Assembly: GCF_008033115.1 (NCBI RefSeq)
Contig: NZ_CP041203.1
Span: forward strand, 744,001-808,000
Direction of reading: 5' to 3'
Length of the DNA: 64,000 nt
Origin: Cellulomonas sp. Y8
GTDB taxonomy: Bacteria > Actinomycetota > Actinomycetes > Actinomycetales > Cellulomonadaceae
Shown: piece by piece, positions 29,720 to 43,468 of the stretch
How positions within the stretch are numbered: the stretch's first letter is position 1
Layout: each line of letters starts with the position of its first letter
Program-made: the position numbers and the translations under genes
Notes under the pieces: model-generated
The model's input: the letters and a program-made list of their open reading frames with translations, nothing else
Database searches by the model: none
Told to the model about the DNA's origin: nothing

Positions 29720-29820
29720 CGCCTCCTTCTCCCACCGGGGCCGCTCGGCGGTCCGTCCCGCACCCCACCCACCCCCACCCGGGCGACGGCACGCTGCCGC
29801 GCGCCCACGGAAGGACACGC

Positions 29821-30747
29821 ATGCGCACCCGCACCCGCCGTTCCGCCCTCGCCGCCTCGGCGCTCGTCGCCGGCCTGGCCCTGACGGCCTGCGCCTCCGA
29901 GGGCGGCTCCGGCAGCGCCTCCGACGAGGAGCGCCTCGAGAACGGCGACCTGCCCACCGTGTCGATCGGCGTGCACTCCGGCTGGGACGAGGGCATCGCC
30001 GTGTCGGCGCTGTTCCAGACCATGCTGGAGGAGGACGGCTACACGGTGGAGTCGCAGGAGGCGGACGCCGGCGTCGTCTACACCGGCCTGGCCGGTGGCG
30101 ACTTCGACGTCAACTTCGACATGTGGCTGCCCACCACGCACGAGGACTACCTCGAGCAGTACGGCGACGACATGGAGCAGCTTGGCGTCTGGTACGACGA
30201 CGCCCGCCTCACCATCGCGGTGAACGAGGACGCGCCCATCACCTCGATCGACGAGCTCGCCGAGAACGCCGACGCGTTCGGCAACCGGATCGTCGGCATC
30301 GAGTCCGGTGCCGGCCTGACCCGGATCACCCAGGACGAGGCCATCCCGACCTACGGCCTGGACGACATGGAGTTCGTCGTCTCCTCGACCCCGGCGATGC
30401 TCGCCGAGCTCAAGGGCGCGACCGACGCCGGCGAGAACATCGCCGTCACCCTGTGGCGCCCGCACTGGGCGTACGACGCCTACCCCGTCCGCGACCTCGA
30501 GGACCCCGAGGGCGCCATGGGCGAGGCCGAGGAGATCCACACCGTCGGCCGCACCGGCTTCGGCGAGGACTACCCGACGCTGACCAAGCTCATCGGCGCG
30601 TTCGAGCTGACCGACGAGCAGCTGTTCTCGCTCGAGAACCTCATGTTCAACGAGAACGGCGGGTCGGACCCGACCGGCTCCGCGCAGCAGTGGCTCGACG
30701 AGAACCCGGACTTCGTCACGGACCTCAAGGAGAAGGCGGGCGTCTGA
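29821..30747 (+). CDS. proX: Glycine betaine-binding lipoprotein (OpuAC type)
   Basis: 308 residues. A lipoprotein signal ends in LTAC (Cys24). The OpuAC-type binding domain follows, with aromatic residues expected to cage the quaternary ammonium in HSGWDEG, FDMWLPTTHEDYLEQY and TLWRPHWAYDAYP. The ATG follows proW by about 100 bp with AAGGA 5 bases upstream. It delivers betaine or a related compatible solute to ProVW. The operon ends at the strong hairpin at 30766. Confidence 0.95.
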   Translation: MRTRTRRSALAASALVAGLALTACASEGGSGSASDEERLENGDLPTVSIGVHSGWDEGIAVSALFQTMLEEDGYTVESQEADAGVVYTGLAGGDFDVNFDMWLPTTHEDYLEQYGDDMEQLGVWYDDARLTIAVNEDAPITSIDELAENADAFGNRIVGIESGAGLTRITQDEAIPTYGLDDMEFVVSSTPAMLAELKGATDAGENIAVTLWRPHWAYDAYPVRDLEDPEGAMGEAEEIHTVGRTGFGEDYPTLTKLIGAFELTDEQLFSLENLMFNENGGSDPTGSAQQWLDENPDFVTDLKEKAGV

Positions 30748-30858: not shown

Positions 30859-31590
30859 TCAGTCCGCCTGGGGGACCGTTTCACGGAAGCGGGCCGCCAG
30901 GGACTCGCCCGCCGCCACGGCGCCCGCGATCTCCGGCTCCGGGACGTGCGCGAGGCGCAGGCAGCCGCGCACCACGGCCTCGGCGTAGGCCGCGCGGGTG
31001 CCGTCGTCGCCCCACTGCCGCTGGCTGATGATGCCCTCGACCAGCCCGAACGCCAGCTCCAGGTCCGCCTCGGGCAGCTCCGCCGCGTCGACGCCCTGCC
31101 GCTCCAGCACCGCCACGGACAGCGCACGGTAGTGCGCGCGCAGCGCGACCTGGCTCTCCCGGGTCTCGGCGAACTCGGTCTCGGCGATGTCGAGCAGCCG
31201 GTAGACGACGTGCAGGTTCCACCGGTCGCGCAGCAGCCCGTCGAGGTCGTACCGCGCGAGGCCGGCGAGCGCAGCGGCCGGGTCGACGGGGCCGCCGTCC
31301 GGGCCGGCCGTGCGCAGCCAGTCGGCGAACTGCACGGACGGCGCCACGGTGCCCTTGAGCAGCGAGCGCAGGATCTGGCTCTTGTCGGCGAAGTGGTAGT
31401 ACAGCGACGCCTGCTTGATGCCCACGGCGTCGGCGATCTGCCGGGTCGTGGTCTCGGTGTAGCCCTGCGAGCCGAACAGCGACGCGGCGGCCGCCAGGAT
31501 CTCCTCGCGGGTGCTCAGCGCGGAGTTCGCGCGCGGGGCCGACCGCGGCCGGCCCCGGCGGCGCGGCGCGGCCTCGGCCTGCTCAGCCAC
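30859..31590 (-). CDS. TetR family regulator of the nitrogen-compound island
   Basis: 243 residues. The basic N-terminus RRRGRPRSAPRANS leads into the TetR helix-turn-helix REEILAAAASLFGSQGYTETTTRQIADAVGIKQASLYYHF (about residues 29-68). The rest is the helical ligand and dimerisation domain. GTG 31590 overlaps the 3' end of the amidohydrolase gene by 8 bp, so the two are co-transcribed. Two copies of a CNGTCACNGACAG motif in the divergent promoter region at 32.9 kb are candidate operators. The inducer is probably an intermediate of the pathway encoded to the right. Confidence 0.93.
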   Translation of the reverse strand: MAEQAEAAPRRRGRPRSAPRANSALSTREEILAAAASLFGSQGYTETTTRQIADAVGIKQASLYYHFADKSQILRSLLKGTVAPSVQFADWLRTAGPDGGPVDPAAALAGLARYDLDGLLRDRWNLHVVYRLLDIAETEFAETRESQVALRAHYRALSVAVLERQGVDAAELPEADLELAFGLVEGIISQRQWGDDGTRAAYAEAVVRGCLRLAHVPEPEIAGAVAAGESLAARFRETVPQAD

Positions 31591-32848
31591 GGTCCACCGT
31601 CCTCCCGTCGTCGGCGCGGGCGTCCTTGACGACCCGCCCATCCTGCACCACGACGCGCACCCGGCGGGGGTCCGCGAGCGCGTCGATGCTGGTGAGCGGG
31701 TCGACGTCGGTGAGCACCAGGTCGGCGCGCAGCCCCGGCGCCACCGTGCCCACCTGATCCGCGATCCCGAGCATCCGCGCCGCCCCGGAGGTGCCCGCGA
31801 CGATCGCGGCGGCCGGTGACAGCCCGTGCTCGACGAGCAGGGCCAGCTCGGTGAGGTTGGTGCCGTGCGGGGCGATGCCCGCGTCGGTGCCGAGCGCGAC
31901 CGGCACGCCGGCCGAGATCGCCACGTGCAGCCGCTCCCGCGCGGTGTCCTCCACGGCGCGGCGCTTGGCGGCGACCCACGGCGCGACCCCGTCCGCCACC
32001 GGGCGGGTCAGCGTGGACAGCGTCGGCACGAGCCAGGTGCCGCGCTCCCCCATCAGGTCGATGGTGGCGTCGTCCACGAGGTAGCCGTGCTCGACGCTGC
32101 GCACCCCGGCCCGGACCGCGGCGGCGATGCCCGCGGCGCCCTGCGCGTGCGCGGCCACCCCGACGCCGCCGTGCCGGTCGGCCTCCTCGACGACGGCGCG
32201 GAGCTCGGGCTCCGACAGGCCGCCGGACTCCGGGTGGCTGCGGGGGCTGCCCATGCCGCCGGTCGCGGCGACCTTGACCCAGTCGGCGCCCTGCCGCAGC
32301 ACCTCGCGGACCGCGCGCACGAACTCGGCCGGCGAGTCGGCCACCGCTCCCGCACCGGGACCCGTGTCCAGCGCCACCCCCTCGATCGTGCGCCAGTCGC
32401 CGTGCCCGCCGGTGATCGACAGGATCCGGATGGCGACCTGCAGTCGCGGGCCGCGCACCAGCCCCTGCTCCAGCGCGTCCCGGAACCCGGAGTCCGCCCC
32501 GGCCAAATCGCGGGCGGTCGTCACGCCGGCGTCGAGGGTCGCCGACAGGTGCGGGACGGACCGCAGGGTGAGCAGCGACTCCGGCGCCAGGACGGTGCCG
32601 AGGGTGTCGCCGCCGGGCGACGTGCTGACGTGCACGTGGCAGTCGAGGAACCCGGGCAGCAGCGTGCGGCCGGCCCCGTCGAGGACGGCGAGGCGGGCCG
32701 GGTCGGCGGTCGCGGCGCCGGGCACCACGGTCCCGGTGGGCCCGACGGCGGCGATCAGGCCGCCCGAGACCAGCACGTCCGTGCCTGGGCGCGGGTCGGC
32801 CCCCGTGCCGTCGATCAGGCGCACGTCGCGCAGCAGCAGGTCGGTCAC
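31583..32848 (-). CDS. Amidohydrolase family metalloenzyme
   Basis: 421 residues, a TIM-barrel amidohydrolase of the imidazolonepropionase/prolidase-like group. The metal ligands are HxH in DCHVHVS (about residue 66), a likely carboxylated Lys in DWVKVAATGG, His in VAAHAQGAAGI and SVEHGYL, and Asp in LGTDAGIAPHG. It should hydrolyse an amide or cyclic amidine-like bond. It is divergent from the ABC importer and allophanate genes, suggesting that it processes an imported substrate before the downstream enzymes. GTG 32848 has GAGGAG 8 bases upstream; an ATG further upstream is less likely. Confidence 0.9.
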   Translation of the reverse strand: MTDLLLRDVRLIDGTGADPRPGTDVLVSGGLIAAVGPTGTVVPGAATADPARLAVLDGAGRTLLPGFLDCHVHVSTSPGGDTLGTVLAPESLLTLRSVPHLSATLDAGVTTARDLAGADSGFRDALEQGLVRGPRLQVAIRILSITGGHGDWRTIEGVALDTGPGAGAVADSPAEFVRAVREVLRQGADWVKVAATGGMGSPRSHPESGGLSEPELRAVVEEADRHGGVGVAAHAQGAAGIAAAVRAGVRSVEHGYLVDDATIDLMGERGTWLVPTLSTLTRPVADGVAPWVAAKRRAVEDTARERLHVAISAGVPVALGTDAGIAPHGTNLTELALLVEHGLSPAAAIVAGTSGAARMLGIADQVGTVAPGLRADLVLTDVDPLTSIDALADPRRVRVVVQDGRVVKDARADDGRTVDRG

Positions 32849-32892
32849 GGGCGTGCTCCTCGGGGTCGGGAGCGGCCAGGCTAGCCCATTAC

Positions 32893-32975
32893 CTGTCACA
32901 GACAGATTTTACGTCCCGGCAACACCGCGCAACCCCGTGGCAACGCTCCGGGTCTACTTTTCCGGTCACCGACAG
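32893..32975. promoter_or_regulatory. Paired TetR-type operators in the divergent promoter region
   Basis: CTGTCACAGACAG at 32893-32905 is a perfect palindrome (CTGTC-ACA-GACAG), and CGGTCACCGACAG at 32963-32975 matches it at 11 of 13 positions. The first overlaps the spacer of a leftward promoter whose -10 would be TAGCCT (32878-32883, minus strand). The second lies just after TACTTT (32955-32960), a rightward -10. One TetR protein could thus control both arms of the island. Confidence 0.65.
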
Positions 32976-33102
32976 GAAATGCGTCGGCCGCACCACGGCG
33001 CGGATCCGACGGGTCCGCCCTCCCCGCACCTCCCCTCCCCTCGGCGTCGCGGCCCCCTCCTCCCGCACCCGTCGACGCACCCCCGACCGAGAGGCACCGA
33101 GC

Positions 33103-34719
33103 ATGAGCCCGAGCACCGTCCGCGCCACCACGCGGTCCGCCCGCCGCCCCCGCACCGCCGCCCGCACGCGCACCACCACCGCGGCCGCCGCCGTCGCCGG
33201 GCTGCTGGCCCTGACCGCCTGCGGGCAGAGCGGCACCGTCGGCGGCGGGTCCGGCGACGACGACGACACCTTCACCGCCGTGATGCTCACCGGCTACACC
33301 ACGCCGCCGGACCCGGACGTCAACTACGACGGCCCCGGCCTCAACATCATCGAGAACACCTACGAGGGCCTGGTGGCCTATCAGGACGGCGTCGAGGAGC
33401 CGACGATCGTCCCGGAGCTCGCCGAGGAGTGGACCGTCTCGGACGACGGGCTCACCTACACGTTCACCCTGCGGTCGGGCGTCACGTTCCACGACGGCAC
33501 CGAGCTCACCTCCGAGGCGGTGGAGGCGTCGTTCGAGCGGCGCACCCAGGTCGACGCCGGCCCGGCGTACATGGTCGGCGACGTCGCGTCCGTCGAGACC
33601 CCGGACGACCTCACCGCCGTCGTCACGCTCACCGCGCCGAACGCCGCGTTCCCCGACTACCTCGCCTCGCCGTTCGGCGTGAAGCTCGTGAGCCCGACGG
33701 TGCTCGCCGACGAGGCCGGCGACGACTTCGCGCAGACCTACCTGACGACGCGCGACGCCGGCACCGGCCCGTACGAGCTGACCGCGGTCGAGACGGGTGA
33801 GCGCTACGAGCTCACCGCCTACGACGGCTACTGGGGCGACGCCCCGGAGCTCACCTCCATCGAGATCCAGGTCGCCGAGAACGCCTCGTCGGCGCAGCTG
33901 CAGCTCGAGCGCGGCGAGATCGACGCGATCCTCGGCAACCTCAACAAGACCTCGTTCGAGTCGTTCGAGGGCAGCGAGGACGTCACGACGTCGACCTTCC
34001 CGAACTTCACGACGCAGATGATCTACGTCAACCCGGGCTCGGCCTGGCTCGCCGACGTCGCGGACCGCGAGGCGCTGTTCGCGGGGATCGACAAGGAGTC
34101 GATCATCGACGAGGCCATGGGCAGCCTGGAGGTGCCGACCGACCAGCTGTTCCCGCAGGGCATGGTCGACGCGAGCATCGACGACCAGGGCATCGTCTAC
34201 GACGAGGGCGCCTGGGACGCGCTGGGCACGCCGGCCTCCGGCACCGTGCGCATCGCGTACGCCGGGTCCAGCGCCGACGGCAAGGCCGTCGCCGAGGAGC
34301 TCGGCTCGCGGCTGAGCACCGCCGGCATCCCCGCCGAGGCCGTCGCCTACTCGGCCGGCACCATCTACGGCATCGCCGACGAGGGCGCCGAGGGCCCGGA
34401 CCTCGCGGTGTTCTCCGTGTTCCCCGACGCCGGCCACCCGGACGCCTGGGCCAGCATCATCTACACCCCGGCCGGCGGCCTGGACCTGTTCGGCGCCGAG
34501 GTGCCGGGGCTGACCGACCTGCTCGGCACCGCCCGCGCCAGCGAGGACATCACGGCGTACGCGCCCGTCGCCGAGGCCATCAACGCCACGCGCTACTGGT
34601 ACTCGATCGGGTCGCTCAACACCACCCTGCTGACCACGCCGGACGTCACCGGCACGACCGAGGCGCAGAACGTCCTCGAGTACGACGTGCTGCACTTCGC
34701 GGCGCTCGGCCGGGGCTGA
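33103..34719 (+). CDS. ABC transporter substrate-binding lipoprotein, dipeptide/nickel (SBP_bac_5) type
   Basis: 538 residues. A long basic N-terminus precedes a lipobox LTAC (Cys40). The SBP_bac_5 pattern includes IIENTYEGLVAYQDG, AEEWTVSDDGLTYTFTLRSGVTFHDG and GTGPYELTAVETGERYEL. It is first gene of the rightward operon and should determine substrate specificity for the importer. Family members bind peptides, opines, nickel and other small polar molecules; the enzymes that follow suggest a nitrogen-rich compound here. Four-Asp and acidic stretches after the lipobox form the linker to the membrane. Confidence 0.94.
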   Translation: MSPSTVRATTRSARRPRTAARTRTTTAAAAVAGLLALTACGQSGTVGGGSGDDDDTFTAVMLTGYTTPPDPDVNYDGPGLNIIENTYEGLVAYQDGVEEPTIVPELAEEWTVSDDGLTYTFTLRSGVTFHDGTELTSEAVEASFERRTQVDAGPAYMVGDVASVETPDDLTAVVTLTAPNAAFPDYLASPFGVKLVSPTVLADEAGDDFAQTYLTTRDAGTGPYELTAVETGERYELTAYDGYWGDAPELTSIEIQVAENASSAQLQLERGEIDAILGNLNKTSFESFEGSEDVTTSTFPNFTTQMIYVNPGSAWLADVADREALFAGIDKESIIDEAMGSLEVPTDQLFPQGMVDASIDDQGIVYDEGAWDALGTPASGTVRIAYAGSSADGKAVAEELGSRLSTAGIPAEAVAYSAGTIYGIADEGAEGPDLAVFSVFPDAGHPDAWASIIYTPAGGLDLFGAEVPGLTDLLGTARASEDITAYAPVAEAINATRYWYSIGSLNTTLLTTPDVTGTTEAQNVLEYDVLHFAALGRG

Positions 34720-34814
34720 CCCCCGCGCCACCCCTGACCCCGGGGCGGGGTCGTCACCCCCTGACCGGCCCCGTCCCGGGCTCCACCCCTCGTTCCCTGC
34801 CCAAGGAGACCGCC

Positions 34815-36545
34815 ATGCCCGCTGCCGAGAGCCCCGTGCTCCGCGTCGACGGCCTCGACGTCCGGCTGACCCGCGACGGCGAGAGCGTGCACGCCGTCCG
34901 CGGCGTCGACCTGACCGTCGAGCGCGGCGAGGTCGTCGGCCTGGTCGGCGGGTCCGGCTCGGGCAAGAGCATCCTCGGCCTGTCGGTCATGGGCCTGCTG
35001 CCCGCCTCCGCCCGCCCCGTGGTCTCCGGGGCCGTCGACCTGGCCGGCACCGACATGATCGGCGCCCCCGACGCGGCCCGGCGCGCCGCCCGCCGGCAGC
35101 ACGTCGGCGCGGTGTTCCAGGACCCGATGACCTCGCTCGACCCGACCATGACGATCGGGCGGCAGCTCGGCGAGGTCACCCGCGACCGGGCCCACGCGCT
35201 GTCCCTGCTGGAGGACGTCGGCATCCCCCGCGCCGCGGACCGGCTGAAGGCCTACCCGCACCAGCTGTCCGGCGGCCTGCGCCAGCGCGTGATGATCGCG
35301 CTCGCCGTCGCCCGCCGCCCCTCGCTGATCCTCGCCGACGAGCCGACGACGGCCCTCGACGTCACGGTGCAGGCGCAGATCCTCGACCTGCTGCTGACGC
35401 TGCGCGAGGACATCGGCTGCTCGATCGTGTTCGTCACCCACGACCTCGGCGTCGCGGCGCAGGTCTGCGACCGGATCGCCGTGATGCAGCACGGGCGGAT
35501 CGTCGAGTCGGCCGGGGTCGACGAGGTGTTCGGCAACCCGACGCACGCGTACACGAAGAACCTGCTGCGGTCGCGGATCGACCTGCGGACGCCGCGGGAC
35601 CGGCCGCTGGCGGCGATGCCGGTGACCCCCGCCGCCCCCGCGCCCGGACCTGCCCCCGCGGACGACGACGTCGCCGTCGGCGCCGACGGCGTGCTCGACC
35701 TCGCCCCCGGCGCGCCCGCCCCCGGGCTCCCCGAGGTGTGGCCCCCGGTGGTCCTGCGCGACGGCGCCGCCGTCACCGTCCGCGACGCGCACCGCGTGTT
35801 CCGCAGCGGCCCGCCGTGGCGGCGCCGCGAGCTGGCCGCCCTGCGCGGCGTCGACCTCGACGTCCGCGCCGGCGAGGCCGTGGCGCTGGTCGGCGAGTCC
35901 GGCTGCGGCAAGTCGACGCTGCTGCGCGTCGTCGCCGGGCTGGAGACCACCACCGCCGGCGAGGTGACCGTCGCCGCGGGCGCCGCCCCGCAGATGGTGT
36001 TCCAGGACGCCGGCGCCTCGCTCACCCCGTGGCTGCGGGTCGGCACGATGCTCGACGAGCGGCTGCAGGCGCACGTCACGGGCATGTCCCGGGCGGAGCG
36101 CACCGACCGCGTCCTCGACGCCCTGCGCACGGTCGGCCTGCCGCCGGAGACGGCGCGGGCCCGCGGCGACCAGCTCTCCGGCGGCCAGCGGCAGCGCGTC
36201 GCGCTCGCCCGCGCGGTCATCGTGCCGCCGACCGTCCTGCTGTGCGACGAGCCGACCAGCGCGCTCGACGTGTCGCTCGCCGCCACGGTGCTCAACCTGA
36301 TCGGCCGGCTGCGCCGCGAGCTCGGGATGTCCGTGCTGTTCGTGACGCACGACCTCGCGGCCGCCCGCATCGTCGCCGACCGGGTCGCCGTGATGCGCGA
36401 GGGCCGGATCGTCGAGGTCGGCCCGACCGACGACGTCTGCGAGCGCCCGCAGCACGAGTACACCCGCACGCTGCTCGGCGCGATCCCCGGCCCGCAGCAC
36501 CGCCGCGACCGCGTCGCCACCCCCACGATCGGAGCCGCGCTGTGA
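34815..36545 (+). CDS. Fused double ABC ATPase (DppD-DppF type)
   Basis: 576 residues with two complete ATPase domains in one chain. Domain 1: Walker A GGSGSGKS (residues 45-52), signature LSGGLRQRVMIALAV, Walker B LILADEPTTALD. Domain 2: Walker A GESGCGKST (about 360), signature LSGGQRQRVALARAV, Walker B VLLCDEPTSALD. A Pro/Ala-rich linker of about 50 residues joins them. It powers the two permeases that follow. The C-terminal oligopeptide/dipeptide motif after domain 1 is shortened. Strong AAGGAG before the ATG. Its stop overlaps the next GTG. Confidence 0.95.
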   Translation: MPAAESPVLRVDGLDVRLTRDGESVHAVRGVDLTVERGEVVGLVGGSGSGKSILGLSVMGLLPASARPVVSGAVDLAGTDMIGAPDAARRAARRQHVGAVFQDPMTSLDPTMTIGRQLGEVTRDRAHALSLLEDVGIPRAADRLKAYPHQLSGGLRQRVMIALAVARRPSLILADEPTTALDVTVQAQILDLLLTLREDIGCSIVFVTHDLGVAAQVCDRIAVMQHGRIVESAGVDEVFGNPTHAYTKNLLRSRIDLRTPRDRPLAAMPVTPAAPAPGPAPADDDVAVGADGVLDLAPGAPAPGLPEVWPPVVLRDGAAVTVRDAHRVFRSGPPWRRRELAALRGVDLDVRAGEAVALVGESGCGKSTLLRVVAGLETTTAGEVTVAAGAAPQMVFQDAGASLTPWLRVGTMLDERLQAHVTGMSRAERTDRVLDALRTVGLPPETARARGDQLSGGQRQRVALARAVIVPPTVLLCDEPTSALDVSLAATVLNLIGRLRRELGMSVLFVTHDLAAARIVADRVAVMREGRIVEVGPTDDVCERPQHEYTRTLLGAIPGPQHRRDRVATPTIGAAL

Positions 36546-37426
36546 CCACCGCCGACCTCGCCGTCTCCCCCGGCGGCGCCACCACCCGCGCCGCCCGCCG
36601 CTGGGCCCGCGTCACCGCCGTCCGGCACCGCGCCCTCGGCGTCGACCTGGTCGCCATCGGCGCGCTCGCGCTGATCGTGGCCGTCGCGCTCGCCGCCCCC
36701 GTGCTCGCGCCCCACTCGCCGGTCCTGCGCAGCGGCGAGGCGTTCCTGCCGCCGCTGAGCCCCGAGCACCTGCTCGGCACCGACGCGCTGGGCTACGACA
36801 TCCTGTCCCGCCTGCTGTTCGGCATGCGGTCCAGCCTGGTCGCCGCGGTGATCGTGATCGCGTCCGGCGTGCTCGTCGGCGGGCTGATCGGCCTGCTGGC
36901 CGGAGCGCTGCCCGGCTGGGTCGACGCGCTGCTGATGCGCACCACCGACCTGTTCCTGGCGCTGCCCGGCCTGGTCATCGCGATGGCCGTCGCCGCCGCG
37001 CTCGGCGCGTCGTTCACCTCGGCGCTGGTCGGCGTCGCGGTGGTCTGGTGGCCGCTGTACGCGCGGCTGGTCCGCGGCGAGGTCCGCGCGTGGGCCGCCC
37101 GGCCGCACCTGGAGGCTGCGCGGCTCGCCGGCACCCCATGGGGCACCCGGGTCACCCGGCACCTGCTGCCGGGGGTCCGCTCCACGATCGTGGTCGCCGC
37201 GAGCCTCGACGTCGGCGGGCTGGTGGTCGCGCTGTCGGGCCTGTCGTTCATCGGCCTGTCGTCGCCCGCACCCGCGCCGGAGCTCGGCGCGATGGCCGCC
37301 CAGGGCATGGCGTACCTGCTGCAGGCCTGGTGGGTGCCGATCTTCCCCGGCCTGGCGGTCCTGGTGATCGCGCTGGCGGCGAACCTCGCCGGCGACGGCG
37401 TCCGCGACCTGATGCGGGGGCGCTGA
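36542..37426 (+). CDS. ABC transporter permease, DppC type
   Basis: 294 residues from a GTG overlapping the ATPase stop. The typical DppC N-terminus LVAIGALALIVAVALAAPVLA is followed by the PLSPEHLLGTDALGYDILSRLLFGMR signature. About six membrane helices and the coupling loop EAARLAGTPWGTRVTRHLLPG complete it. DppC normally follows DppB in such operons; here the order is reversed. It pairs with the 37502 permease to form the membrane channel. Confidence 0.95.
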   Translation: MTTADLAVSPGGATTRAARRWARVTAVRHRALGVDLVAIGALALIVAVALAAPVLAPHSPVLRSGEAFLPPLSPEHLLGTDALGYDILSRLLFGMRSSLVAAVIVIASGVLVGGLIGLLAGALPGWVDALLMRTTDLFLALPGLVIAMAVAAALGASFTSALVGVAVVWWPLYARLVRGEVRAWAARPHLEAARLAGTPWGTRVTRHLLPGVRSTIVVAASLDVGGLVVALSGLSFIGLSSPAPAPELGAMAAQGMAYLLQAWWVPIFPGLAVLVIALAANLAGDGVRDLMRGR

Positions 37427-37501
37427 GGTGCGCCGCCCCGCCCGCGCCGCGCGCCGCGCCGCCGCCCCCCGCCCGTCCCGAGCCGCCGAGGAGGCCCTCG
37501 C

Positions 37502-38500
37502 ATGGTGATGTTCCTGGTCAAGCGCGTCGCCGCGACGATCGGCGTGCTGCTCGCGCTCACGATGGCGCTGTTCGGCCTCCAGGAGGTCAGCGGCGTCGAC
37601 CCCGCCAAGGCGTACGTCGGGGCCAACGCCTCCGCCGACGCGGTGGCCGCCGCCCGCGAGCGCCTCGGCCTCGACGAGCCCCTGGTGCAGCGCTACCTCA
37701 CCTACCTCGACGGCCTGCTGCACGGGGACCTGCAGAACTCGCTGCGCAGCCGCACCCCGGTCGCCGACAACCTGGCCCAGGTGCTGCCGGCCAGCCTCGA
37801 GCTCGCGGCGTGGGTGCTCGGCATCGCGCTGGTCCTGGGCGTGGCGTTCGCGGCCCTCACCACGCTGCGGTGGCGCGGCGCCGGCATCGTGCGGGTGGTG
37901 CTGCTCAGCGGCGCCGCCGCCCCGACGTTCCTGCTCGGGATGGTCGCGCTGCTGGTGTTCTACGGCAACCTCGGCTGGCTGCCGTCCGGCGGCCGCACCG
38001 GGCTGCGGGACGCCCCCGCCGGGCCGACCGGGTTCCTGGTGCTCGACGGGCTGCTGGCCGGCCGGTTCGACGTGGCCGGCGACGCCGTCACGCACCTCGC
38101 GCTGCCTGCCCTGTGCGCCGCCATCTCCCCCGCGGTCGCGATCGGCCGGGTGCTGGTGGACGGGCTCAAGGCCAACATGGCCGCCGACCACGCCCGCACC
38201 GCCCGCGCCGCCGGCATGGGCGAGCGGCAGATCCTCGTGCGGCACGCCGTCCGGAACTCCCTCGGTCCGACGCTGTCGATGGTCGGCATCCAGGCGGGCA
38301 TGCTCCTGGCCGGCCTGGTGGTCGTGGAGAAGATCTTCGACTGGCCCGGCGTCGGCTCCTACCTCGACAAGTCCGTCGCGGCCTCCGACTTCCCCGCCAT
38401 CGCGGGCGTCGCCCTGCTGCTCGGCGTCGTCTACGTCCTGCTCAACACCGTCGTCGACGTGCTCCAGGCCGCCGCCGACCGCCGCATCGCCCTCGCCTGA
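37502..38500 (+). CDS. ABC transporter permease, DppB type
   Basis: 332 residues. The N-terminal VKRVAATIGVLLALTMALFGL helix and the periplasmic ARERLGLDEPLVQRYLTYL motif define DppB-type permeases. The coupling loop reads ARTARAAGMGERQILVRHAVRNS. Six membrane helices. GAGG 8 bases upstream of the ATG. The 75-bp gap from dppC is pure GC filler with no structure that I can support. Confidence 0.95.
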   Translation: MVMFLVKRVAATIGVLLALTMALFGLQEVSGVDPAKAYVGANASADAVAAARERLGLDEPLVQRYLTYLDGLLHGDLQNSLRSRTPVADNLAQVLPASLELAAWVLGIALVLGVAFAALTTLRWRGAGIVRVVLLSGAAAPTFLLGMVALLVFYGNLGWLPSGGRTGLRDAPAGPTGFLVLDGLLAGRFDVAGDAVTHLALPALCAAISPAVAIGRVLVDGLKANMAADHARTARAAGMGERQILVRHAVRNSLGPTLSMVGIQAGMLLAGLVVVEKIFDWPGVGSYLDKSVAASDFPAIAGVALLLGVVYVLLNTVVDVLQAAADRRIALA

Positions 38501-38534
38501 GCGCGGTCGCACCACCCCCGGAAGGAACCACCTC

Positions 38535-39176
38535 ATGAACGTCACCGGCAACGCCGTGCTCATCGTCGTCGACATCCAGGGCGGCGACGTCGAGCGCGCC
38601 GAGTCCCGCACCGAGATCCCGTACATGCCCGGCCGCACCGAGCGGGCGCCGCGCGTGCGCAAGATGATCGCCACCTGCCGCGAGCAGGGCATCCCGGTGG
38701 TCTGGATCCAGGAGGTGCACAAGCCCTCGCTGATCGACATCGGCCGCGAGCTGGACGGCGCCGAGGGCCCGCACTGCGTCGAGGGCTGGCCGGAGACCGA
38801 GCTCGCGCAGGGCCTGGACCCGCGGCCCGACGAGTTCCTCATCCGCAAGCGCCGGTACTCCGCGTTCTTCGGCACCGAGCTGGAGATCGTGCTCAAGGCG
38901 TACCAGGCCGACACCGTGATCCTCATCGGCGGCCTGACCGACGTGTGCATCCACTACACCGCCGTCGACGCCCACCAGCACGACTACCGGGTGCGGGTCG
39001 TCACCGACGCGGTCGGCGGGTCCTCCCAGGAGGCGCACGACGCCGCGCTGCGCGCCATCGACTACCTGCAGCGAGACGCGCTGGTCACCGCGGAGGACGT
39101 GCAGCAGTGGCTCGTCACCGCGGAGCCGAACCCCGAGGTGCAGCGCGCGCTCGCCACCACCGCCCAGGCCGTCTGA
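38535..39176 (+). CDS. Isochorismatase-like cysteine hydrolase, possible biuret hydrolase
   Basis: 213 residues. The catalytic triad of the family is present: Asp13 in LIVVDIQGGD, Lys105 in IRKRRYSAFFGT and the nucleophile Cys138 in GGLTDVCIHYTAVDA, with the preceding non-proline cis-peptide region. Family members include biuret hydrolase, ureidoacrylate and N-carbamoyl amidohydrolases. The location directly before two DUF1989 genes and an allophanate-hydrolase-type amidase favours biuret-like hydrolysis yielding allophanate, but close relatives with other substrates share these motifs. AAGGA precedes the ATG by 9 bases. Confidence 0.88.
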   Translation: MNVTGNAVLIVVDIQGGDVERAESRTEIPYMPGRTERAPRVRKMIATCREQGIPVVWIQEVHKPSLIDIGRELDGAEGPHCVEGWPETELAQGLDPRPDEFLIRKRRYSAFFGTELEIVLKAYQADTVILIGGLTDVCIHYTAVDAHQHDYRVRVVTDAVGGSSQEAHDAALRAIDYLQRDALVTAEDVQQWLVTAEPNPEVQRALATTAQAV

Positions 39177-39185
39177 GGAGGACCG

Positions 39186-40022
39186 ATGACCAGCATCTCC
39201 ACCGCCTCGCCGCTGGGGGCGCGCGACCACGCGCGCGCCCAGGGCGGCACGGTCGTCGGCACGATGCCGACCGTGCCCGCGGCGACCGCCGCCGACTGGC
39301 CCGCCGACGTCGCGCCCGAGGACCGGCTGCACGCCGAGACCGTCGCCGGCGGGAACTACACCACCGTCGTCCTGGCCCGCGGCTCGGTGCTCGAGCTCAC
39401 CGACCTGGAGGGCGACGCGTGCGCCCACCTCGTGCTCACCAACGCGGCCCAGGTCGACGAGCGGCTGAACGTCGCCGACACCGTGAAGATCCAGTGGCAG
39501 GCCTACCTGGGCGCCGTCTCGATGCTGCTGTCCGACCGCGGCCGGGTGCTCGCGACGGTCGTCGAGGACACCTCGGGCCGGCACGACACCTTCGCCGGGA
39601 CGTCGTCGAAGGCCGCGAACGAGGCCCGGTACGGCGACGGGTCCCCGCAGGGCGGCACCCCCGCCGGCCGCGAGCTGCTGCTGCTCGCCGCGCTGAAGAA
39701 CGGGCTGGACGCGCGCGACGTGCCGCCGAGCCTGTCGTTCTTCCAGGGCGTCCGCATCGCCGACGACGGGACCACGGAGTTCACCGGGTCGGCCGGCGCC
39801 GGTGCGCGGGTCCGGCTGCGGCTCGAGCTGCCGTGCGTCGTGCTGCTCGCCAACGTGCCCCACCCGGTCGACCCGCGCGCGGAGTACGTCTCGACGCCGC
39901 TGCGGGTCCGCGCCTGGCGCGGGGCGCCCGCGGGGCTGGACGCGCCGGAGGCCACGGCCGGCCCGGAGGCCGAGCGGGCCTTCGCCAACACCATCGACTA
40001 CGCCCGCGCGAGGGGACTGTGA
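39186..40022 (+). CDS. DUF1989 protein 1, urea carboxylase-associated / carboxyguanidine deiminase-type subunit
   Basis: 278 residues. The DUF1989 core begins near residue 50 (GGNYTTVVLARGSVLELTDLEGDAC) and includes GRHDTFAGTSSKAANEARYG and FFQGVRIADDGTTEF. Paired DUF1989 proteins were long called urea carboxylase-associated proteins; work on guanidine metabolism showed that such pairs can act as carboxyguanidine deiminase (CgdAB), giving allophanate. GAGGAGG directly upstream of the ATG. Its stop overlaps the second DUF1989 gene's GTG. Whether it acts on carboxyguanidine here is doubtful because no carboxylase is nearby. Confidence 0.9.
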   Translation: MTSISTASPLGARDHARAQGGTVVGTMPTVPAATAADWPADVAPEDRLHAETVAGGNYTTVVLARGSVLELTDLEGDACAHLVLTNAAQVDERLNVADTVKIQWQAYLGAVSMLLSDRGRVLATVVEDTSGRHDTFAGTSSKAANEARYGDGSPQGGTPAGRELLLLAALKNGLDARDVPPSLSFFQGVRIADDGTTEFTGSAGAGARVRLRLELPCVVLLANVPHPVDPRAEYVSTPLRVRAWRGAPAGLDAPEATAGPEAERAFANTIDYARARGL

Positions 40023-40024
40023 CC

Positions 40025-40699
40025 ATGACCGCTGCACCCACCTCCCCCGTCCCCTCGACGGACGCGCGACCCGCGCGCCTCGCCGGCGCCGCCGTCGTGC
40101 TCGACGAGGTCGTCCCGCGCCGGTCCGCGTGGTCGACCGTCGTCCGCGCCGGCCAGGAGCTCACCATCGTCGACCTGGAGGGCAACCAGGCCGTCGACTG
40201 CCTGCTCTACGACGCGCACGACACGTCCGTCCGGTACTCCGCGTCCGACACGATCGCGGCGCAGCGCAACGTCTACCTGGTGCAGGGCTCCGTGCTGCGG
40301 GCCGGCACCGGTGACGCGCTGATGACGCTGGTGCACGACGAGGTCGGCCGGCACGACACCATCGGCGGCGCCTGCTCCAAGGAGTCCAACTCCCTGCGGT
40401 ACGGCCACCACACCGTGCACCAGCACGCCTGCGTCGAGAACTTCCTCGCCGAGGGCGCCCGGTGGGGGCTCGGCAAGCGGGACCTGGTGTCGAACATCAA
40501 CTGGTACATGAACGTGCCGGTCGAGGCGGACGGCGCGCTGGGCATCGTCGACGGGATCTCGTCCCCCGGCCTGTCGCTGACGCTGCGCGCCGAGCGGGAC
40601 GTCCTGGTGCTGGTGTCGAACTGCCCGCAGATCAACAACCCGTGCAACGGGTTCGACCCGACCCCGGTGCGGATGATCGTGACGGAGGGGGCGGCGTGA
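40025..40699 (+). CDS. DUF1989 protein 2, urea carboxylase-associated / carboxyguanidine deiminase-type subunit
   Basis: 224 residues from ATG 40025 (a GTG at 40019 overlapping the previous stop is an alternative). It shares with its partner the DLEGNQAVDCLLYDA strand and the GRHDTIGGACSKESNSLRYG motif, and adds the Cys-containing HQHACVENFL, LVSNINWYMNVPV and NCPQINNPCNGFDPTPVR segments. It should form a heteromer with the 39186 product. The stop overlaps the start of the amidase gene (GTGA), which supports a common pathway leading to allophanate. Confidence 0.9.
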   Translation: MTAAPTSPVPSTDARPARLAGAAVVLDEVVPRRSAWSTVVRAGQELTIVDLEGNQAVDCLLYDAHDTSVRYSASDTIAAQRNVYLVQGSVLRAGTGDALMTLVHDEVGRHDTIGGACSKESNSLRYGHHTVHQHACVENFLAEGARWGLGKRDLVSNINWYMNVPVEADGALGIVDGISSPGLSLTLRAERDVLVLVSNCPQINNPCNGFDPTPVRMIVTEGAA

Positions 40700-42126
40700 C
40701 CTCGGTGGCCGGGCTCGACGCGGTCACGCGCGCCTACGCCCGGATCGCCGAGGTCGACCGGCCCGAGGTGTGGATCCACCTGCGGCCCCGGGCCGACGTC
40801 GAGGCCGACGTGCGCGCGCAGGCCGACCGGGCGGCGGCGGGCGCGGACCTGCCGCTCCTCGGCCGCCTGGTCGCGGTGAAGGACAACATCGACGTCGCGG
40901 GGCTGCCGACGACCGCGGGCTGCCCCGGCGTCGCGTGGACCCCGGCCGCGGACGCCACCGCCGTCGCCCGGCTGCGGGCCGCCGGCGCCGTGGTGCTGGG
41001 CAAGACGAACCTCGACCAGTTCGCCACCGGGCTCGTCGGCACCCGCAGCCCCTACGGCGCGGTTCGGTCCGCCGACCACCCCGACCGGATCTCCGGCGGG
41101 TCGTCGTCCGGGTCGGCCGTCGCCGTCGCGCTCGGGATCGTCGACCTCGCGCTCGGCACGGACACCGCCGGGTCGAACCGGGTGCCCGCCGCGCTCCAGG
41201 GCGTCGTCGGGGTCAAGCCGACGCCCGGGCTCGTGCCGACCACCGGGGTGCTGCCGGCGTGCCGGTCGCTCGACTGCGCGGGGGTGTTCGCGCGGTCGCT
41301 GCCGCTGGCGGCCCTCGCGGTGGGCCTGATGGCCGGGCCGGACGGGGTGGACGCGCTGGCGGCGCGGCCCGTGCCCGCCGACGTCGCGGGGCACGCGCCG
41401 GACGCCCCGGTGCTCGCCGTGCCCCGGGCGGCGGACCTCGACGCGCTCGCCCCGCTGTGGCGGTCGGCGTTCGACGCGACCGTCGCGTCGCTCCGGTCCG
41501 CCGGGTGGACGCTGCGCGAGGTCGACCTCACGCCGTTCCTCGACGCCGCGCGGCTGCTGTACGACGGGGCGTTCGTCGCCGAGCGGTACGCCGCCGTCGG
41601 CGGGCTGGTCGACTCCGGGCCCGAGGGCCTGGACCCGGTGGTGGCAGGCATCATCCGCGCCGCGGGCGAGCTCCCCGCGCACCGGTACGCCGCGGACCTC
41701 GTCACGCTCGCGGAGCTGCGCGTCGTCGCGGAGGCCGCGCTGGGCGACGCCGACGCGCTGCTGCTGCCGACGACCACGCACCACCCGACGCTGGCCGAGG
41801 TGGCCGCGGCGCCGGTGGCGGTGAACTCCCGGCTCGGGACGTACACCAATTTCTGCAACCTGTTCGGGTACGCCGCGGTGGCCGTGCCGGTCGACGCCGG
41901 GGTCCCCGGCGAGCGGGTCGGCGTCTCCGTGCTGACCCGCGGGTTCGCGGACGGCGCCGCGCTGGACCTCGCGGGGCGGCTGCTGGCCGACGCCGGGCCG
42001 CGGGCGTGGGAGGTGCTGGACGGCGCGCCGGGGACCGCGGCGGAGGACGGCGCGGCCGCCGCGTCGGCGCTGGCCGCGTCGGTGCGGGTCGGCGCGGGCC
42101 GGGTCGCGGACCCGGTGCCGGCGTGA
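40696..42126 (+). CDS. Allophanate hydrolase-type amidase, without C-terminal domain
   Basis: 476 residues, amidase signature family. Catalytic Lys62 (VAVKDNID), cis-Ser about 136 in ISGGSSSGSAVA and nucleophile Ser160 in LGTDTAGSNRVPAAL are present. The segment GVLPACRSLDCAGVFARS and FVAERYAAVGGLVD are characteristic of allophanate hydrolases (AtzF/DUR1) rather than general amidases. Full AtzF has a further C-terminal domain of about 130 residues that processes N-carboxycarbamate; it is missing here. The usual Gly after TAGS is Asn. It should turn allophanate into ammonia and CO2. Coupled on both sides by GTGA overlaps. Confidence 0.88.
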   Translation: MTSVAGLDAVTRAYARIAEVDRPEVWIHLRPRADVEADVRAQADRAAAGADLPLLGRLVAVKDNIDVAGLPTTAGCPGVAWTPAADATAVARLRAAGAVVLGKTNLDQFATGLVGTRSPYGAVRSADHPDRISGGSSSGSAVAVALGIVDLALGTDTAGSNRVPAALQGVVGVKPTPGLVPTTGVLPACRSLDCAGVFARSLPLAALAVGLMAGPDGVDALAARPVPADVAGHAPDAPVLAVPRAADLDALAPLWRSAFDATVASLRSAGWTLREVDLTPFLDAARLLYDGAFVAERYAAVGGLVDSGPEGLDPVVAGIIRAAGELPAHRYAADLVTLAELRVVAEAALGDADALLLPTTTHHPTLAEVAAAPVAVNSRLGTYTNFCNLFGYAAVAVPVDAGVPGERVGVSVLTRGFADGAALDLAGRLLADAGPRAWEVLDGAPGTAAEDGAAAASALAASVRVGAGRVADPVPA

Positions 42127-43388
42127 CGCTCGACGCCGCCACCCCGCCCGTCGCCCCGCCCGCGCCGGGCCCCGCGCGCGGACCCCGGCTCTGGCCGATG
42201 GCGACCGGGACGTTCGCGATCGGGTTCGGCTCGTACGTCATGGCCGGGCTGGTGCCGAGCGTGTCCGCGGAGCTCGACGTGTCGGTCAGCCAGGTCGGCA
42301 CGCTGGTCAGCGTCTACGGCTTCACGTACGCGGTGTCCACGCCGCTGCTCACGCTCGTCGTCGGGCGCGTGCCGCGCCGGCTGCTCATGGCCGTGGCGCT
42401 GGGCCTGTTCGCGCTGGCCACCGGCGCGACGGCGTTCGCCACGACCTACGACCAGGTGGCCGTGCTGCGCGGGCTGTCGGCGGTCGCGGCCGGCGGGTTC
42501 ACGCCGACGGCCACGGTGCTGGCGGCGCGGCTGGCCCCGCCCGGGCGGCGCGGGCGGGCGGTCGCGACGGTGTTCGGCGGGCTGACGACGGCGACCGTCC
42601 TCGGGGCGCCGGCGGGCAACCTGCTCGGCCCGGCGCTCGGCTACCGCGGCGTCTACGCCCTGGTGGGCGCCCTGGCGCTGGTGGCGCTGGTGAGCGTCCT
42701 GGCGCTGGTCCGCGTCCCGCGCACGGCCGCGGAGAACGCCGAGATCGGTGCTTCGCGCCGAGATCGGTCCGTTGAAGCACCGATCTCGGACCGAACCACC
42801 GCTCTGGGCGCGCCAGGCGCCGCCCTGCCCGGGCTCGTCGCCGTCGTGCTGCTGGTGTCGATGCTCGAGACCGCGTCGGCGCTCATGGTGCAGACCTACT
42901 CGTCGCCGCTGCTCACCGACCTCGGCGGGCTGACCGGCGCGCTGCTCAGCGCCGTGCTGCTGGCGTACGGCGTGGCGGGGGTCGCGGGCAACGTCGTGGG
43001 CGGGCGGCTCGCCGACCGGTTCGGCGCCGCCCGCAGCATCGTGCTCGCGCTGGGGACGTCGGTGGTGGCGCTGCTGCTGCTCACCCCGGCGACGGCGACC
43101 GCGTGGACCGCGCTGGCGGTGTTCGCGCTGTGGGGGTTCGCCGCATGGGCGATGAACTCTCCCCTGCAGAACGTGCTGCTCACGCTGGCGGGCCGGCACG
43201 GGCAGCTGGTGGTGGCGCTGAACTCGTCGATCATCTCGCTCGGCACCGGCCTCGGCGCCCTGGTGGGCGGCTGGGTCGTGGCCGGCCCGGGCTACGCGGT
43301 GCTCGGCGCCGCGGCGGCGGCGGTCATGCTCGTGGCGGTCGTCCTGGTCGCGGTCCTGTCCCGCCGTCCGGCGGTCGCGGCCGTCTGA
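42123..43388 (+). CDS. MFS transporter with an in-frame palindromic insert
   Basis: 421 residues, twelve-helix major facilitator of the DHA1/AraJ-like type. The conserved loop between helices 2 and 3 reads VVGRVPRRLLMAVAL, and GGRLADRFGAARSIV is its counterpart in the second half. The central cytoplasmic loop (residues about 206-223) is encoded by a 51-bp palindromic element. It is last gene of the island operon, overlapping the amidase stop; it may export an intermediate or toxic analogue, or import the substrate by a second route. Transcription probably ends at the repeat hairpin at 43412. Confidence 0.9.
   Translation: MTLDAATPPVAPPAPGPARGPRLWPMATGTFAIGFGSYVMAGLVPSVSAELDVSVSQVGTLVSVYGFTYAVSTPLLTLVVGRVPRRLLMAVALGLFALATGATAFATTYDQVAVLRGLSAVAAGGFTPTATVLAARLAPPGRRGRAVATVFGGLTTATVLGAPAGNLLGPALGYRGVYALVGALALVALVSVLALVRVPRTAAENAEIGASRRDRSVEAPISDRTTALGAPGAALPGLVAVVLLVSMLETASALMVQTYSSPLLTDLGGLTGALLSAVLLAYGVAGVAGNVVGGRLADRFGAARSIVLALGTSVVALLLLTPATATAWTALAVFALWGFAAWAMNSPLQNVLLTLAGRHGQLVVALNSSIISLGTGLGALVGGWVVAGPGYAVLGAAAAAVMLVAVVLVAVLSRRPAVAAV
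42739..42789. repeat. Palindromic element inside the MFS coding sequence
   Basis: Perfect 16-bp arms CCGAGATCGGTGCTTC (42739-42754) and GAAGCACCGATCTCGG (42774-42789) flank a 19-base loop that carries a third copy of CCGAGATCGGT. It is read in frame, adding EIGASRRDRSVEAPISD to the loop between transmembrane helices 6 and 7. Location and symmetry resemble insertable palindromic repeats known from other bacteria. Confidence 0.8.
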
Positions 43389-43409: not shown

Positions 43410-43468
43410 GACAGTGGAAGGTTGTGACGGACATGCCGACGGCGTGTCCGTCACAAGCTTCCACTGTC
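43410..43468. terminator. Repeated hairpin, copy 2, between convergent genes
   Basis: Arms 43412-43437 and 43441-43466 correspond to the palindrome at 11606-11660, with one G-U pair, one mismatch and a GAC turn; here the pairing extends two more bases on each side. It sits between the convergent MFS and CDF genes, 22 bp from each stop, an ideal bidirectional terminator position. Confidence 0.8.

What the first reader, a model, noticed from the sequence alone, without database searches (positions are those of the whole stretch)
30859..43388. Self-contained island for an unidentified nitrogen-rich compound, converging on allophanate without a carboxylase
Seen: TetR and amidohydrolase divergent from a run of SBP, fused double ATPase, DppC, DppB, cysteine hydrolase, two DUF1989 proteins, allophanate-hydrolase-type amidase and MFS, with GTGA overlaps linking the later genes. 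Known: cysteine hydrolases of this type include biuret hydrolase (product allophanate), DUF1989 pairs can be carboxyguanidine deiminase (product allophanate), and the amidase degrades allophanate. Odd: DUF1989 pairs normally accompany a biotin-dependent urea/guanidine carboxylase, and none is present here. Inference: the substrate may be imported already carboxylated or acylated, or the DUF1989 pair has another reaction, with the amidohydrolase doing the first cut.
Basis: partly seen in the sequence, partly recalled or inferred. Interest (0 to 1): 0.82.

Follow-up and report, generated by a model that had tools for sequence, protein, structure and literature searches.

The report
Carboxylase-free carboxyguanidine-to-allophanate catabolic island
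A gene island in Cellulomonas-type bacteria seems to import a nitrogen-rich guanidine-like compound and break it down to ammonia by hydrolysis alone, skipping the ATP-using carboxylase that these deiminase genes normally accompany, and a little-known enzyme family that travels with it may make the bypass possible.

Summary
TetR and amidohydrolase (AmH) lie divergent from SBP, fused ATPase, DppC, DppB, cysteine hydrolase (CH), UAAP1, UAAP2 (the carboxyguanidine deiminase pair CgdAB), allophanate hydrolase and MFS. No urea/guanidine carboxylase was found in this genome or in seven others with all or part of the island. In 396 genomes sampled from the order, 41 of 44 with UAAP2 have a carboxylase; the three without carry this island. 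In that sample CH occurs in 19 genomes, all UAAP2-positive. Streptomyces shenzhenensis shows a second apparent case, with the AmH-Opp-CH module and a UAAP1-UAAP2-AtzF operon on different contigs. Island UAAP2 keeps every position conserved in the comparison set, so the usual reaction is likely.

Best reading: CH (perhaps after AmH) releases carboxyguanidine hydrolytically from a carbamoylguanidine such as guanylurea; CgdAB and AtzF finish. Substrate and CH reaction are inferred. CH is only 27% identical to a tested guanylurea hydrolase, whose reported product is guanidine, and 13 of 58 CH genomes from a separate scan lack UAAP2 over its cut-off. New variant of a known pathway.

The parts
30859..31590 (-). 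TetR regulator (longest ORF 30859-31641); groups with the TetRs of the same module in Streptomyces and Agreia
   Evidence: quick tree; 41% over 197 aa to a TetR divergent from a carboxylase-linked UAAP operon
31583..32848 (-). Amidohydrolase AmH (PF01979; kin of Xaa-Pro and arginine carboxypeptidase-type enzymes, weaker matches to phenylurea and molinate hydrolases)
   Evidence: relatives of 62-71% in the Streptomyces and Agreia modules
32893..32905 (.). Operator-like palindrome CTGTC-N3-GACAG (CTRTC-N3-GAYAG across loci), followed by ATTTTAC, in 9 aligned loci
   Evidence: (20-base pattern to 32912, up to 2 mismatches: 1 match in window, 0.00 expected)
32963..32976 (.). Second operator-like site cGGTC-N3-GACAGg, about 70 bp downstream of the first, aligned in the same loci with changes
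   Evidence: alignment, sequence
33103..34719 (+). Substrate-binding protein, SBP_bac_5 (peptide/nickel-type)
34815..36545 (+). Fused double ATPase of an Opp/Dpp-type importer
36542..37426 (+). DppC-type permease, GTGA overlap with the ATPase gene
37502..38500 (+). DppB-type permease
38535..39176 (+). CH: isochorismatase-like cysteine hydrolase; catalytic Asp13, Lys105, Cys138 by alignment; proposed to release carboxyguanidine
   Evidence: co-occurs with UAAP2 in 19 of 19 CH genomes of the order sample
39186..40022 (+). UAAP1 / CgdA-type DUF1989 subunit
   Evidence: TIGR03425 281 bits, cut-off 206; PF09347
40019..40699 (+). UAAP2 / CgdB-type DUF1989 subunit (GTG at 40019 overlapping the UAAP1 stop, or ATG at 40025)
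   Evidence: TIGR03424 322 bits, cut-off 285; 38 of 38 conserved positions kept
40696..42126 (+). Allophanate hydrolase amidase domain (476 aa; C-terminal domain not matched)
   Evidence: NF006043 544 bits, cut-off 487, profile 25-453 of 600; 41 of 42 conserved positions kept, R239 lost
42123..43388 (+). MFS transporter; in Agreia its 57% relative directly follows CH, without the UAAP-AtzF cassette
43410..43468 (.). Long inverted repeat (29-nt arms, 93% complementary) just after the last gene, possible transcription end

Best explanation
The island is a carboxylase-free variant of the carboxyguanidine deiminase / allophanate hydrolase pathway. An Opp/Dpp-type ABC importer brings in a guanidino compound that already carries the carbonyl carbon, most simply a carbamoylguanidine (guanylurea type), possibly N-substituted. 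AmH may remove a substituent first. The cysteine hydrolase CH cleaves the terminal carboxamide, giving ammonia and carboxyguanidine, just as its distant relative biuret hydrolase turns biuret into allophanate. The UAAP1/UAAP2 pair deiminates carboxyguanidine to allophanate, and the amidase breaks allophanate to ammonia and CO2. No ATP or biotin is spent on the chemistry. A TetR of the group that sits beside actinobacterial guanidine-carboxylase operons controls the island through twin CTGTC-N3-GACAG-type sites. SHOWN here by sequence: gene content, no carboxylase found, conservation of deiminase and amidase positions, co-occurrence of CH with UAAP2, conserved operator-like sites. INFERRED: substrate, CH reaction and product, roles of AmH and MFS, TetR binding.
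For: (1) No urea/guanidine carboxylase (TIGR02712) over cut-off in G000 (1 contig, 99.55% complete), G312, G220; no match at E<=1e-200 in five more genomes with all or part of the island (0 of 5). (2) Order sample: 41 of 44 UAAP2-positive genomes have one. (3) CH in 19 of 396 genomes, all 19 UAAP2-positive (25 of 377 otherwise); Fisher p=1e-20, by genus 5 of 5 against 11 of 109, p=4e-6. (4) UAAP operons with no carboxylase in the fetched stretch occur only in CH genomes of that sample, 6 of 19 against 0 of 25, p=0.004. (5) S. shenzhenensis: module on one contig, UAAP1-UAAP2-AtzF without carboxylase on another, no match at E<=1e-200 in the genome. (6) UAAP2 keeps 38 of 38, UAAP1 34 of 36, AtzF 41 of 42 conserved positions; island UAAP2 lies among carboxylase-linked ones in a quick tree. 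(7) Related regulator and half-site: CTGTC-N3/4-GACAG-type site in 10 of 27 TetR-UAAP1 spacers of the sample, all with N4, 0.09 expected, against N3 in the island. (8) CH has Tyr108 where biuret hydrolase has an essential Lys, as does the tested pMET-2 guanylurea hydrolase.
Against: CH is only 27% identical to the tested guanylurea hydrolase, and the Tyr is found in other members of the superfamily. Published guanylurea hydrolases are reported to give guanidine, not carboxyguanidine. Of the 19 CH genomes of the order sample, 13 keep a carboxylase beside UAAP and 3 elsewhere, so CH does not by itself imply a bypass. The 6 UAAP operons without a neighbouring carboxylase come from only two genera. 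CH also sits in clusters with phosphotriesterase-like, Rieske, amine-oxidase and amidase genes, suggesting larger or varied substrates. Thirteen of 58 other CH genomes have no UAAP2 over cut-off; Streptomyces radicis has CH, the TetR and its site but neither UAAP2 nor a carboxylase match. Seventeen of 27 TetR-UAAP1 spacers, all nine of family f9 among them, lack the exact site. All 7 island AtzF rows lose R239, conserved in 98% of the others. The statistics ignore shared ancestry except in the by-genus form.
Confidence: 0.5

Rival explanations
1. The DUF1989 pair deiminates some other carboxylated or acylated guanidino compound made by AmH and CH, not free carboxyguanidine; allophanate or a substituted allophanate is still the end.
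For: AmH and other metallo-hydrolases, RidA and amidases recur around CH, and a peptide-type importer suggests a larger substrate.
Against: All 38 UAAP2 positions conserved in the comparison set are kept, and the AtzF motif LLY-x7-R is intact (its role in allophanate binding is recalled).
Confidence: 0.2
2. Ordinary guanidine pathway: another biotin carboxylase (acyl-CoA type) or an undetected enzyme carboxylates guanidine.
For: Island genomes keep acyl-CoA-carboxylase-like proteins.
Against: No full-length urea/guanidine carboxylase found in 8 island genomes or S. shenzhenensis (the last at E<=1e-200 on drafts). The separate match to model positions 445-752 is a stand-alone protein listed for at least 13 of 16 genomes, with or without UAAP-linked carboxylase.
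Confidence: 0.1
3. CH is a biuret (or triuret) hydrolase feeding allophanate straight to AtzF, and the DUF1989 pair serves a side substrate.
For: Same superfamily; such hydrolases cluster with atzF (PMC7948467 passages).
Against: NF050097 64.8 bits, cut-off 370; the essential second Lys is Tyr. It would not explain why CH tracks UAAP2 in 19 of 19 genomes of the order sample.
Confidence: 0.08
4. UAAP1/UAAP2 are relics left after carboxylase loss and do nothing here.
For: They lie among carboxylase-linked pairs in the tree.
Against: Tightly packed or overlapping genes in one run, kept with conserved positions in 8 genomes.
Confidence: 0.04

Closest known systems
Guanidine carboxylase pathway (guanidine carboxylase - CgdAB - AtzF)
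   Same: CgdAB and allophanate hydrolase homologues over curated cut-offs (AtzF by NF006043), in one run of genes, TetR nearby as in many actinobacterial UAAP operons
   Different: No carboxylase found; instead an Opp importer, amidohydrolase, cysteine hydrolase and MFS; no guanidine-I riboswitch in the genome
Guanylurea mineralisation in Pseudomonas mendocina GU/MET (GuuH - guanidine carboxylase - CgdAB - AtzF)
   Same: An isochorismatase-like hydrolase ahead of CgdAB and AtzF in the proposed pathway
   Different: There the reported product is guanidine and the carboxylase is present (PMC9800807 passages); CH is 27% identical to pMET-2 GuuH; different transporter
Biuret/triuret pathway (TrtA, BiuH, AtzF)
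   Same: Hydrolase of the same superfamily, ending in allophanate hydrolysis
   Different: Second active-site Lys replaced by Tyr; NF050097 not met; DUF1989 pair added
AmH-Opp-CH module of Streptomyces (NBC_00564 plasmid, S. shenzhenensis) and Agreia
   Same: Same seven genes in the same order, similar operator-like sites, CH 78-83% identical
   Different: No UAAP-AtzF cassette beside it; NBC_00564 has two phosphotriesterase-like genes and RidA, Agreia goes straight to the MFS gene

Membership tests
Carboxyguanidine deiminase CgdAB | Pair of DUF1989 subunits of the UAAP1 and UAAP2 types | tested here: met
   TIGR03425 and TIGR03424 over cut-off
Carboxyguanidine deiminase CgdAB | Positions conserved in other (mostly carboxylase-linked) pairs | tested here: met
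   UAAP2 38 of 38 kept in all 9 island rows; UAAP1 34 of 36 (A64 in 7 of 9, G111 in 8 of 9, V in the window) (L048 and L133 are one locus)
Carboxyguanidine deiminase CgdAB | Turns carboxyguanidine into allophanate | not testable with these tools
   -
Guanidine carboxylase pathway | Guanidine carboxylase (TIGR02712) | tested here: not met
   none over cut-off in G000, G312, G220; none at E<=1e-200 in 5 further genomes
Guanidine carboxylase pathway | Guanidine riboswitch control | tested here: not met
   no guanidine-I in the genome (other classes searched in the window only), no Rfam match in the window; none either in 6 related loci, 3 of them carboxylase-linked
Allophanate hydrolase AtzF | Curated model and conserved amidase positions | tested here: met
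   NF006043 544 bits, cut-off 487; 41 of 42 positions incl. K62, S136, S160, Y289 and R297; TIGR02713 slightly under its cut-off; residue roles recalled, not from a call
Allophanate hydrolase AtzF | C-terminal domain | tested here: not met
   not matched in the window, L130, L132, L048; matched in L134
Biuret hydrolase BiuH | NF050097 over cut-off | tested here: not met
   64.8 against 370 bits
Biuret hydrolase BiuH | Second active-site Lys (K145 of BiuH) | tested here: not met
   Tyr108 by alignment through GuuH
Guanylurea hydrolase GuuH | Close sequence kinship to a tested enzyme | tested here: not met
   27% over 171 aa to pMET-2 GuuH; the strain GU enzyme was not available
Guanylurea hydrolase GuuH | Activity on guanylurea | not testable with these tools
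   -

The most novel reading that the evidence does not exclude
The CH family (loci found at 55-98% identity, nearly all in Actinomycetota) is a new family of carbamoylguanidine amidohydrolases that hand carboxyguanidine directly to CgdAB. This is an ATP- and biotin-free entrance to the guanidine pathway that let at least two lineages (Cellulomonas, Streptomyces shenzhenensis) do without the carboxylase.
Probability: 0.42. Interest if true: 0.76.

Novelty: new variant of a known kind. Interest (0 to 1): 0.63.

Why it matters
CgdAB is usually read as a mark of guanidine use through an ATP-dependent carboxylase. If carboxyguanidine can be made by hydrolysis, part of these annotations are wrong, a cheaper route for guanylurea-type nitrogen (from metformin, dicyandiamide fertiliser additive or unknown natural compounds) exists in actinomycetes, and the genomes that lack the carboxylase point to the substrate. 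The CH-CgdAB co-occurrence and the TetR sites give direct handles for finding it.

Tried and rejected
Rejected: biuret hydrolase identity of CH; guanidine riboswitch control; a distant carboxylase supplying the island; urease as the sink for an allophanate-derived urea (no urease alpha match in G000, G220, G312). Led nowhere: reading the substrate from SBP or AmH kin, from structures (the only UAAP2 hits of known function are TMAO demethylases), or from the Microbacterium and Curtobacterium CH clusters.

Errors on the way: the acyl-CoA carboxylase query and the UC query were antisense open frames; they located the genes but their identities mean nothing. onward uses the sense frame, whose 1410-aa open frame includes read-through upstream of the gene and hides some UAAP2 rows. 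In one search the UAAP2 query began out of frame; corrected. In one search the group 'UC_only' also holds three distant DUF1989 rows without a carboxylase (L084, L086, L089) and three whose carboxylase lies elsewhere (L074, L076, L077).

Limits: one search was run at E<=1e-200, so a carboxylase split into two medium pieces on different contigs could be missed in those drafts. One search scored at most 7 candidates a genome. L048 and L133 were both kept.

Papers: passages only of PMC12186494, PMC9800807, PMC7948467, PMC12625717, PMC11647477, PMC11271267, PMC11410670; all others as search listings. The founding papers on CgdAB and GuuH are not held. A carboxylase-free route was not seen in the listings (20 of 36 listed; 10 of 530 listed) nor in the passages read; the library holds open-licence papers only.
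Full report
WHAT IS THERE. The two DUF1989 genes pass NCBI's curated cut-offs for the urea-amidolyase-associated proteins UAAP1 and UAAP2. That these are the carboxyguanidine deiminase CgdAB rests on papers cited in the passages I read (PMC12186494, PMC11271267, PMC11410670) and on recall for the link to the name UAAP; PMC11271267 cites CgdAB as a case with an inactive cognate subunit. The amidase passes NF006043 for allophanate hydrolase, but its C-terminal domain is not matched (profile 25-453 of 600). The DUF1989 search of the own genome found only this pair.

NO CARBOXYLASE. The genome is a single contig, 99.55% complete. Its best match to the urea/guanidine carboxylase model is a 469-bit acyl-CoA-carboxylase-like protein, against a cut-off of 1304. 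Guanidine-I riboswitch: none in the genome. Rfam: nothing in the window.

HOW UNUSUAL. In 396 genomes sampled from the order, UAAP2 is over its cut-off in 44. I fetched about 20 kb around the other 43 (shorter at contig ends). In 38 a carboxylase homologue lies within the stretch (BLAST). Five lack it locally: G107, G177 and G065 have one elsewhere (G065 in two pieces at contig ends), while G312 and G220 have none over cut-off. So 41 of 44 have a carboxylase and 3 of 44 do not, and those three are exactly the genomes with this island. In an alignment of 71 carboxylase rows, some of them the same gene fetched twice, the Asp that marks guanidine rather than urea carboxylase (criterion read in PMC11410670) is D in 65, N in 4 and M in 2. 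The four N rows (three genes) are copies not linked to UAAP; the two M rows (L188, L288) are beside UAAP.

THE ISLAND ELSEWHERE. A scan of genome contigs with nine CH sequences kept the best 80 loci of 362. The five others have UAAP2 (5 of 5) and no carboxylase match at E<=1e-200 (0 of 5). With G000, G312 and G220 that makes eight genomes without carboxylase found. G220 lacks the amidase inside the island but has an allophanate hydrolase elsewhere, as do G000 and G312; none of these three has a urease alpha match.

TWO BUILDING BLOCKS. TetR-AmH-SBP-ABC-DppC-DppB-CH is a module of its own: it is present without UAAP genes beside it in Streptomyces NBC_00564 (plasmid), S. shenzhenensis and Agreia. 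In Agreia the MFS gene directly follows CH; in the island UAAP1-UAAP2-AtzF sits between the two. The module's TetRs, with one from a Streptomyces radicis locus that shows only TetR and CH, form one clade (quick tree). Island UAAP2 lies among carboxylase-linked UAAP2, next to carboxylase-linked Cellulomonas copies (quick tree, support 79-96), so the pair probably descends from carboxylase-linked ancestors. It keeps 38 of 38 (UAAP2) and 34 of 36 (UAAP1) positions that are at least 95% conserved in the other rows; AtzF keeps 41 of 42 and loses R239 in all 7 island rows (the comparison rows include a few distant or carboxylase-unlinked copies).

CH TRACKS THE DEIMINASE. In the same 396 genomes CH (E<=1e-35) occurs in 19; all 19 are UAAP2-positive, against 25 of the other 377 (Fisher p=1e-20; by genus 5 of 5 against 11 of 109, p=4e-6). 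Related genomes inflate the first p-value; the genus form is fairer. UAAP operons without a carboxylase in the fetched stretch occur only in CH genomes: 6 of 19 against 0 of 25, p=0.004, though in two genera only. The other 13 CH genomes all have the carboxylase beside UAAP. Among CH genomes from the contig scan, UAAP2 is over cut-off in 8 of 9 (island genomes set aside; chosen to span contexts) and in 37 of 49 (a few overlap with the order sample, and some have UAAP in the same locus). I fetched 44 stretches around UAAP2 genes of such genomes (three places not fetched): 36 have a carboxylase, 8 do not. Only for one of the eight, S. shenzhenensis, was the genome searched: no match at E<=1e-200. 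There UAAP1-UAAP2-AtzF and the AmH-Opp-CH module are on different contigs, a second apparent carboxylase-free case that owes nothing to gene neighbourhood. In Microbacterium rhizomatis one UAAP pair has the carboxylase (L293) and a second sits in an Opp-CH-CH operon without it (L285). Against the pattern, S. radicis has CH but neither UAAP2 nor a carboxylase match.

REGULATION. Between AmH and SBP lie two palindromic sites, CTGTCacaGACAG (32893-32905) and cGGTCaccGACAGg (32963-32976), aligned with some changes across nine loci from Cellulomonas-type genomes, Streptomyces and Agreia (Streptomyces has CTATC). The extended first site occurs once in the window with none expected. In operons of the order sample with TetR beside UAAP1, a CTGTC-N4-GACAG site lies in the spacer in 10 of 27, 0.09 expected from shuffles; 17 of 27 lack it. 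The S. shenzhenensis UAAP operon has ATTTCTGTCGCCCGACAGAAAT upstream. Related regulators and a common half-site for the CH module and many guanidine operons suggest related inducers (inference).

WHAT CH DOES. CH is not a biuret hydrolase by NCBI's model (64.8 against 370 bits). Of the BiuH residues listed in PMC7948467, the second Lys corresponds to Tyr108, as it does in the tested pMET-2 guanylurea hydrolase; this fits a cationic amidine better than a ureide, but Tyr occurs there in other superfamily members. Hydrolysing the carboxamide of guanylurea should give carboxyguanidine, the substrate of CgdAB; that published enzymes are reported to give guanidine could reflect loss of CO2 in the absence of CgdAB (inference). 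The CH family also occurs beside phosphotriesterase-like, Rieske, amine-oxidase and amidase genes, so the real substrate may be larger, with AmH or its substitutes acting first.

VERDICT. The most likely mechanism is a hydrolytic entrance to carboxyguanidine followed by the known CgdAB-AtzF steps, at about even odds for the CH step. It is a new variant of a known pathway; the biochemical test is simple.

Noticed in passing
G000:C1:2408147-2409893 (L229 18148-19894): Allophanate hydrolase elsewhere in the genome. In G000 the model match continues in another frame near the C-terminus, so the gene looks frame-broken there; in G220 it is whole and followed by SsuA-, permease- and ntrCD-type ABC genes. 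In G000 genes of like size follow, not scanned.
   Followed up: partly
L147, L172: CH lies in large clusters with Rieske oxygenase, glutamine-synthetase-like, aldehyde dehydrogenase, GMC oxidoreductase, copper amine oxidase, phosphotriesterase-like and amidase genes: an uncharacterised catabolic network.
   Followed up: partly
L123, L124, L125: Roseobacter and Paracoccus relatives of CH (48-52%): in L123 and L125 after a polar-amino-acid-type ABC transporter, with DMT transporter and ornithine-cyclodeaminase or RidA genes; no UAAP hit in these stretches.
   Followed up: no
window 42739-42789: Perfect 16-nt inverted repeat (CCGAGATCGGTGCTTC) with a 19-nt spacer inside the MFS gene, function unknown.
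   Followed up: no
window 27455-30747: What looks by eye like a glycine betaine/proline-type ABC transporter operon just before the island (translations; no family search).
   Followed up: no
G000:C1:2506879-2507745 (in L091): Stand-alone match to positions 445-752 of the carboxylase model (157.9 bits), of a kind listed for at least 13 of 16 other genomes; probably not a urea/guanidine carboxylase.
   Followed up: no
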